Positions 15,761-16,313 of a DNA stretch of 56,051 nt are shown here, piece after piece. Numbering within the stretch: the stretch's first letter is position 1; each line of letters starts with the position of its first letter. Origin of the DNA: Campylobacteraceae bacterium (GTDB taxonomy: Bacteria > Campylobacterota > Campylobacteria > Campylobacterales > Sulfurospirillaceae); assembly GCA_026988975.1 (NCBI GenBank), contig JALSKH010000095.1, positions 1 through 56,051 on the forward strand. The letters run 5' to 3'. The notes beneath the pieces were generated by a model. The model made no database searches, was not told where the DNA came from, and saw only the letters and a list, made by a program, of their open reading frames with translations. The position numbers were made by a program, and so were the translations under genes.

Positions 15761-16313
15761 ATGAAAAAGGTAGTAATTGCTTCGATAGCAACACTTGCTT
15801 TAGGTTCTAGTTTGTTTGCCACTGTGAACATAAGTACCTAACCAAAAGAAACACCAACTAATAGCAAAAAGAGAACGGTGCGAGTACAAGGCAGATTTTC
15901 GCAGGACTAGCAATAGCTAATTCAAGAAAATCTAACGAAGTAATCGTGCCGTTATCTTTTCGCCCGTAGGGAAGCTCAAAAAGAGCACATCTGACTTCGT
16001 TAAAAACTTTTGATGTACAATAAGTACACCTACAAGTTTTTGCCTTGCATATGCACTCTTTTTGAACTTCTATTAGTTGGTGTCTCTTTTGGCTAGGTAC
16101 TTAAATACATGTAAAGGTTGTCACGGTCAAAATTTTGAGAAAAGAGCACTAGGTAGAAGTGATGTCGTCAAAGATTTGACTAAGATGGATATCGCACGAC
16201 GACTCATAGAGTACAAAACAACCACAGAATCAGATGAGTTAGTTATGAAAGCACAAGTTGCCAGATATTCTGATGCAGAATTAAAAGCAGTAGCACAAAA
16301 GATAGGTAAATAA
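15761..16313 (+). pseudogene. c-type cytochrome gene interrupted by a 270-bp palindromic element
   Basis: 5' part encodes MKKVVIASIATLALGSSLFATVNI then stop inside the element; 3' part continues NTCKGCHGQNFEKRALGRSDVVKD...KIGK*. Removing 15833-16103 restores one frame. Confidence 0.85.
15831..16103. mobile_element. Palindromic element 1 (outer stem + two hairpins + CCCGTAGGG centre)
   Basis: Outer arms 15831-15864 / 16070-16103 (TAAGTACCTAACCAAAAGAAACACCAACTAATAG vs revcomp TAAGTACCTAGCCAAAAGAGACACCAACTAATAG); hairpin L ~15864-15962, centre 15963-15971, hairpin R ~15971-16069. Confidence 0.85.

What the first reader, a model, noticed from the sequence alone, without database searches (positions are those of the whole stretch)
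15761..16313. Element 1 splits a c-type cytochrome gene; removal restores the reading frame
The 5' fragment encodes a signal peptide (MKKVVIASIATLALGSSLFATVNI) and reaches a stop within the element. The 3' fragment resumes immediately after it with NTCKGCHGQNFEKRALGRSDVV. Deleting 15833-16103 yields MKKVVIASIATLALGSSLFATVNINTCKGCHGQNFEKRALG..., a plausible continuous periplasmic cytochrome. The element is flanked by TA (or TAA) on both sides. This is direct evidence that the element moves as a discrete unit and inserted relatively recently. It also raises the question of whether the gene is dead or whether excision/processing occurs.
Basis: partly seen in the sequence, partly recalled or inferred. 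Interest (0 to 1): 0.9.

Follow-up and report, generated by a model that had tools for sequence, protein, structure and literature searches.

The report
Hairpin mobile element splits cytochrome gene
A 269-base mobile DNA element that carries no gene and folds like a cloverleaf has landed inside a small cytochrome gene and broken it, while unbroken versions of the gene exist elsewhere; the surprise is that the same folded element also sits inside a ribosomal RNA gene of a related bacterium.

Summary
Window 15833-16101 is a 269-bp miniature inverted-repeat element (MITE), flanked by a duplicated TA, in a c553-like cytochrome c gene. It adds a stop 3 codons in and shifts the frame. Deleting it restores a 93-aa protein. 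A 98%-identical uninterrupted protein exists in public sequence (P0001): the empty-site test, at protein level. About ten copies lie in this genome (closest twin: 2 differences in 269), and relatives occur in other genomes.

The element is a cloverleaf: outer stem, two homologous inverted arms, short CCC/GGG hairpin. Its pairs covary (59 of 107) without wobble excess, so the symmetry looks kept as DNA. A covariance model of the arm finds more such elements in the window and in 25 of 200 Campylobacterota genomes. In one complete genome both arms, in the same order and spacing, lie inside all three 16S rRNA genes as a helix-10 intervening sequence. A mobile origin of such rRNA inserts thus becomes testable.

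The gene is most likely dead here; nothing suggests excision or splicing. The cognate transposase was not found. The insertion itself is ordinary; the element family and its rRNA link are not.

The parts
15761..15832 (+). 5' part of the cytochrome c gene (start codon, signal peptide, to codon 24); includes the first TA of the duplication at 15831-15832
   Evidence: joined product aligns to P0001 over 93/93 aa
15833..16101 (.). MITE, 269 bp, ends AGTACCT...AGGTACT; brings an in-frame TAA at 15839-15841
15833..15864 (+). left terminal inverted repeat / 5' side of the outer stem
   Evidence: pairs with 16070-16101, 30 of 32 matches
15877..15950 (+). arm A (AAGGC...TAACG motif)
   Evidence: covariance model R1, 88.8 bits, E=1.3e-23 (this arm was in the training set)
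15963..15971 (.). short central hairpin CCC-gta-GGG
   Evidence: pairs covary
15984..16057 (-). arm B, homologous to arm A in inverted orientation
   Evidence: R1, 76.7 bits (in the training set)
16070..16101 (-). right terminal inverted repeat / 3' side of the outer stem
16102..16103 (.). second TA of the target duplication
   Evidence: 12 of 20 copies TA/TA, 19 of 20 TA on at least one side
16104..16313 (+). 3' part of the cytochrome c gene (CKGCH haem motif to stop codon), frame intact

Best explanation
Shown: a non-autonomous, protein-free DNA transposon (MITE, 269 bp, 32-bp terminal inverted repeats, TA target duplication) has inserted at a TA dinucleotide at codon 24 of a small periplasmic cytochrome c gene. 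Translation now stops 3 codons into the element, leaving a 26-aa signal-peptide stub; the haem-binding part is left without a signal peptide, so the gene is broken in this genome. Inferred: the element was moved in trans by a TA-targeting DDE transposase that reads its AGTACC ends. One branch of the same cloverleaf superfamily has ends (TAGACTTCTTGCA) shared with an IS5-family insertion sequence in this same genome, but no insertion sequence with two AGTACC ends was found. Also shown: the element belongs to a wider Campylobacterota superfamily of cloverleaf elements with a conserved inverted pair of arms and divergent ends, one member of which lies in a 16S rRNA gene as an intervening sequence.
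For: Exact rejoining with a TA footprint; uninterrupted 98%-identical protein; about ten own-genome copies, twin with 2/269 differences; matches in 16 of 61 genomes of the relatives search, own included; constant ends, TA flanks; end pattern 47 matches against 1 for the reversed control; deletion derivatives of 56-68 bp and 165 bp; strong fold and covariation; IS5-family element with perfect TAGACTTCTTGC ends at TA in the own genome, same ends as a sister cloverleaf family in G189.
Against: No DNA-level empty site: P0001 comes without genomic context and no relative shares the gene order. The cognate transposase is missing; no IS630 in the own and six same-genus assemblies. The assembly is a 243-contig draft.
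Confidence: 0.92

Rival explanations
1. The gene is alive: the element is removed from the RNA or hopped over by the ribosome (intron-like splicing or translational bypass), so a full cytochrome is made.
For: The frame is intact on both sides and the 3' part has not decayed; the RNA would fold the two sides together; relatives of the element sit in an rRNA gene that must still work.
Against: No Rfam intron match. No wobble excess in the paired cells (22 G-T against 38 A-C), so no sign of selection on an RNA. Published rRNA inserts leave fragmented rRNA, not rejoined rRNA (PMC2801512, PMC4990558), which would not rescue an mRNA. A recent insertion explains lack of decay.
Confidence: 0.03
2. The element excises precisely from DNA often enough to act as an on/off switch for the gene.
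For: An intact allele exists in public data; terminal repeats are nearly perfect.
Against: P0001 differs at two residues (V45I, T63A), so it is a sister lineage and not this copy excised; no transposase with these ends was found; 12 of 20 copies are TA/TA with no sign of invertase or recombinase.
Confidence: 0.04
3. Assembly chimera: a repeat was wrongly joined into the gene.
For: The genome is a 243-contig draft and the element is a near-identical repeat.
Against: The TA duplication and exact frame restoration would have to arise by accident; the twin copy C196 has its own, different flanks.
Confidence: 0.02
4. The mobiliser is an IS1182-family transposase and not an IS5-type one.
For: In a same-genus genome TAAGTACCTA lies 28 bp upstream of the start codon of an IS1182-family transposase (L191; NF033551, E=6.5e-110).
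Against: Only 10 letters match; the other end is off the contig; a 53%-identical homologue (L184) shows no such right end. From my own knowledge, IS1182 elements often insert at palindromes, so this one may have landed in a short copy of the MITE.
Confidence: 0.2

Closest known systems
Bacterial MITEs with TA ends (Correia/NEMIS, RUP, ERIC; review PMC2229807)
   Same: Short, no gene, terminal inverted repeats, TA at the ends, long stem, mostly intergenic, presumed trans-mobilised.
   Different: Larger (269 bp) and built as a cloverleaf: outer stem plus two homologous inverted arms and a central mini-hairpin. No sequence relation was tested for these named families beyond Rfam (no match).
MITE in hupL of Candidatus Thiomargarita nelsonii (PMC4853749)
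   Same: A MITE interrupting a metabolic gene of a sulphur bacterium; no parental insertion sequence found.
   Different: That one has a 10-bp direct repeat and 19-bp inverted repeat; here TA and 32 bp, with an intact allele known.
16S rRNA helix-10 intervening sequences of Campylobacter and Helicobacter (PMC12453555, PMC3335488)
   Same: The insert in the 16S genes of G104 carries both arms of this element family in the same inverted order and spacing, with central hairpin and outer stem.
   Different: The window copy is in a protein gene and has TA ends; ends and target duplication of the 16S insert could not be read for want of an empty relative. The published IVS sequences themselves were not compared.
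IS5-family insertion sequence (L183, own genome)
   Same: TA target, perfect ends TAGACTTCTTGCATAACC; the ends of the G189 branch of the superfamily begin TAGACTTCTTGCA.
   Different: The window element has AGTACC ends, for which no complete insertion sequence was found.

Membership tests
MITE | Short, no protein-coding capacity | tested here: met
   269 bp with stops in all six frames
MITE | Terminal inverted repeats | tested here: met
   32 bp, 30 matches
MITE | Target-site duplication | tested here: met
   TA/TA here and in 12 of 20 copies; 19 of 20 on at least one side
MITE | Multiple dispersed copies with different flanks | tested here: met
MITE | Filled and empty alleles of one site | tested here: met
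   at protein level only (P0001)
MITE | Cognate autonomous element with the same ends | tested here: inconclusive
   none with AGTACC at both ends; IS5-family partner for a sister branch only
Superfamily of cloverleaf elements (model R1) | Inverted pair of arms with AAGGC / TAACG internal-loop motif | tested here: met
   the arm at 17977-18050 was not in the training set and scores 42 bits, E=1e-9
rRNA intervening sequence (helix-10 16S IVS) | The 16S insert of G104 is homologous to the window element | tested here: met
   arms E=1.9e-15 and 6.2e-9, inverted, 105-bp offset against 107; inside 16S; no G104 sequence in the model
rRNA intervening sequence (helix-10 16S IVS) | Published Campylobacter/Helicobacter IVSs carry the same arms | not tested
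Group I/II intron or other Rfam RNA | Match to a curated covariance model | tested here: not met
IS630/Tc1-mariner derivative | A DDE_3 transposase in the genus to mobilise it | tested here: not met
   0 in the own and six same-genus assemblies; drafts, so absence is weak

The most novel reading that the evidence does not exclude
The window element belongs to a Campylobacterota-wide superfamily of DNA-level cloverleaf transposons whose insertion into rRNA genes is the source of the 16S (and perhaps 23S) intervening sequences long known in Campylobacter and Helicobacter, whose origin has been called unclear.
Probability: 0.6. Interest if true: 0.8.

Novelty: new variant of a known kind. Interest (0 to 1): 0.55.

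Why it matters
A MITE breaking a gene is an everyday event. Two things go further. The family has an apparently undescribed cloverleaf build in which an arm motif (AAGGC...TAACG) stays fixed while ends and stems change, which points to a protein that reads folded DNA or to copy-correction between arms. And one member sits inside 16S rRNA genes of a complete genome. The origin of rRNA intervening sequences has been called unclear, with transposition as one hypothesis (PMC4990558). Here a gene-interrupting relative with target duplication, a near-identical sister copy and an intact allele is tied to such an insert by strong arm homology, so that hypothesis can be tested by sequence comparison alone.

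Tried and rejected
IS630 (PF13358) as partner: none in the own and six same-genus assemblies. DDE_Tnp_1 loci: only L183 has ends that match a sister family; none shows AGTACC at both ends. A 718-bp pair of AGTACC-like ends in G007 is a chance pair, one of them in a coding frame. Synteny-based empty site: homologues of the Haem_bd neighbour lie in other neighbourhoods. Plasmid and viral collections: no match. Rfam: nothing. An integron attC-like reading of the arms (TCTAAC, TTCAAG) was considered and dropped because the order of boxes does not fit.

Full report
What was claimed and what is there. Reading the sequence and translating it confirms this exactly. The frame from 15761 gives MKKVVIASIATLALGSSLFATVNI-ST-stop; the frame after the element gives NTCKGCHGQNFEKRALGRSDVV... 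to the stop at 16313. The insertion is 271 bp (269 plus a TA), not a multiple of three, so it shifts the frame as well as adding stops. The joined product is a 93-aa cytochrome c with a CKGCH haem motif; by sequence its nearest solved structures include cytochrome c553 (1c53, E=5.5e-6).

The empty site. A search of 5.8 billion proteins with the joined product found P0001, 93 aa, 98% identical over its full length, with the junction residues VNINTC unbroken. Further homologues (58-67% identical) align across the junction without a gap there. Same-genus genomes hold continuous homologues. P0001 differs at two residues (V45I, T63A), so it is a sister lineage and not this copy excised; no intact close copy is in this assembly. 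Weakness: P0001 has no visible genomic context, and no relative searched shares the gene order around the locus, so the DNA-level empty site remains to be read.

The element. It folds at -110 kcal/mol against -54.5 +/- 4.7 for shuffles. Its outer stem is 32 bp with 30 matches. The own genome has about ten full or near-full copies at 83-100% identity; the closest differs at 2 of 269 positions. Matches occur in 16 of the 61 genomes searched (own included), among them another genus of the family and another family. Aligned copies have constant ends AGTACCT...AGGTACT. Of 20 copies, 12 have TA on both sides and 19 on at least one. By an ORF-spanning test the window copy is the only clear disruption of a gene; several others start at or near the end of an open frame, where the TAA of TAAGTACC can serve as the stop. 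Derivatives of 56-68 bp (little more than the ends) and 165 bp (one arm) exist. The end pattern gave 47 matches in 10 of 41 genomes against 1 for the reversed pattern.

Structure kept as DNA. In the alignment of 20 copies 59 of 107 pairs have double compensatory changes. Non-modal cells are 252 Watson-Crick, 22 G-T and 38 A-C. An RNA under selection would favour G-U over A-C; that is not seen. So the symmetry is more likely kept by recognition of DNA ends or hairpins, or by copy-correction between the arms (inference). Arms A and B are homologous to one another in inverted orientation and flank a short CCC-GGG hairpin.

A wider superfamily. The window contains other elements of the same build with other ends, at about 17813-18106, 23013-23284 and about 34712-34930. 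A covariance model (R1) was built from 18 arms of the window elements and related ones; its 23 pairs are 96.4% paired and covary against both controls. R1 finds six arms in the window; five were in the training set, the sixth (17977-18050) was not and scores 42 bits, E=1e-9. It matches in 25 of 200 Campylobacterota genomes from 15 genera, often as inverted pairs about 107 bp apart. Other branches have ends such as GGGCACCTC or GACTTCTTGC, the latter again at TA in three of three copies.

The rRNA link. In G104, a complete genome of another family of the order, R1 hits three identical loci. They lie inside the 16S rRNA gene (one 1806-nt gene aligned over the whole 1533-position model). No G104 sequence was in the model. 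Both arms are present, E=1.9e-15 and 6.2e-9 for the stretches searched, in the same inverted order and offset (105 against 107 bp), with a CCC-AAA-GGG hairpin between them and a long outer stem. Global alignment of the window element with this insert scores 160 against 108 +/- 8.7 for shuffles. By comparison with the usual 16S sequence (by eye, own knowledge) the site is helix 10, where Campylobacter and Helicobacter inserts are described (PMC12453555; H. fennelliae at position 175, PMC3335488). The latter paper reports 122 bp of the 16S insert similar to 23S rRNA gene sequences of other Helicobacter with opposite polarity, which a mobile element would explain. In G211 a weaker match lies in the 23S-5S spacer. 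I found no paper in the held library that links these inserts to MITEs; that is a limit of the library, not proof of novelty.

How it moves. No IS630 transposase was found in the own and six same-genus assemblies. An IS5-family element in the own genome (L183, about 905 bp, two overlapping frames, perfect TAGACTTCTTGCATAACC ends at TA) shares the ends of the GACTTCTTGC branch. This supports an IS5-type, TA-targeting transposase as mobiliser of the superfamily, with a different cognate for the AGTACC branch. An IS1182-family gene preceded by TAAGTACCTA in G005 is a rival lead. Neither is proven.

Is the gene alive? Translation ends after 26 codons. Published insert-bearing rRNAs are cut and not rejoined (PMC2801512, PMC4990558), which would not rescue an mRNA. 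No intron model matches. The simplest reading is a recent loss-of-function insertion; the 3' part has not decayed. Bypass, splicing or a DNA switch are possible in principle and have no positive evidence.

Verdict. The insertion as such is ordinary. The element is a new variant (cloverleaf MITE superfamily), and its presence in 16S genes makes it more than a curiosity.

Noticed in passing
window 23013-23284: Another cloverleaf element, ends AGTACCCCACC...GGTGGGGTACT, starting at the stop codon of the gene 22231-23016; a 96% copy lies at C100:3312-3582.
   Followed up: partly
window about 17813-18106: Cloverleaf element just after the Memo-like gene, different ends, both arms match R1 (67.7 and 42.1 bits).
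   Followed up: partly
window about 34712-34930: Cloverleaf element with ends like GATACCCACAA, one arm matches R1 at 74.2 bits.
   Followed up: partly
window 39552-39636: A short, nearly perfect stem (24 bp, 92%) with a different loop; not matched by R1.
   Followed up: no
L215 about 405-690 of its reverse complement (G104, three rRNA operons): 16S rRNA genes with a cloverleaf intervening sequence homologous to the window element.
   Followed up: yes
L233 491-575 (G211): One weak arm match in the 23S-5S spacer of both rRNA operons.
   Followed up: partly
L165, L166, L167, L168, L171, L172, L175: Solo TAAGTACCTAAC ends without an obvious partner, often just after a stop codon; more frequent than the reversed control pattern.
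   Followed up: partly
L183 1448-2357 (own genome, C63): IS5-family insertion sequence with perfect TAGACTTCTTGC ends at TA, shared with the G189 cloverleaf branch.
   Followed up: partly
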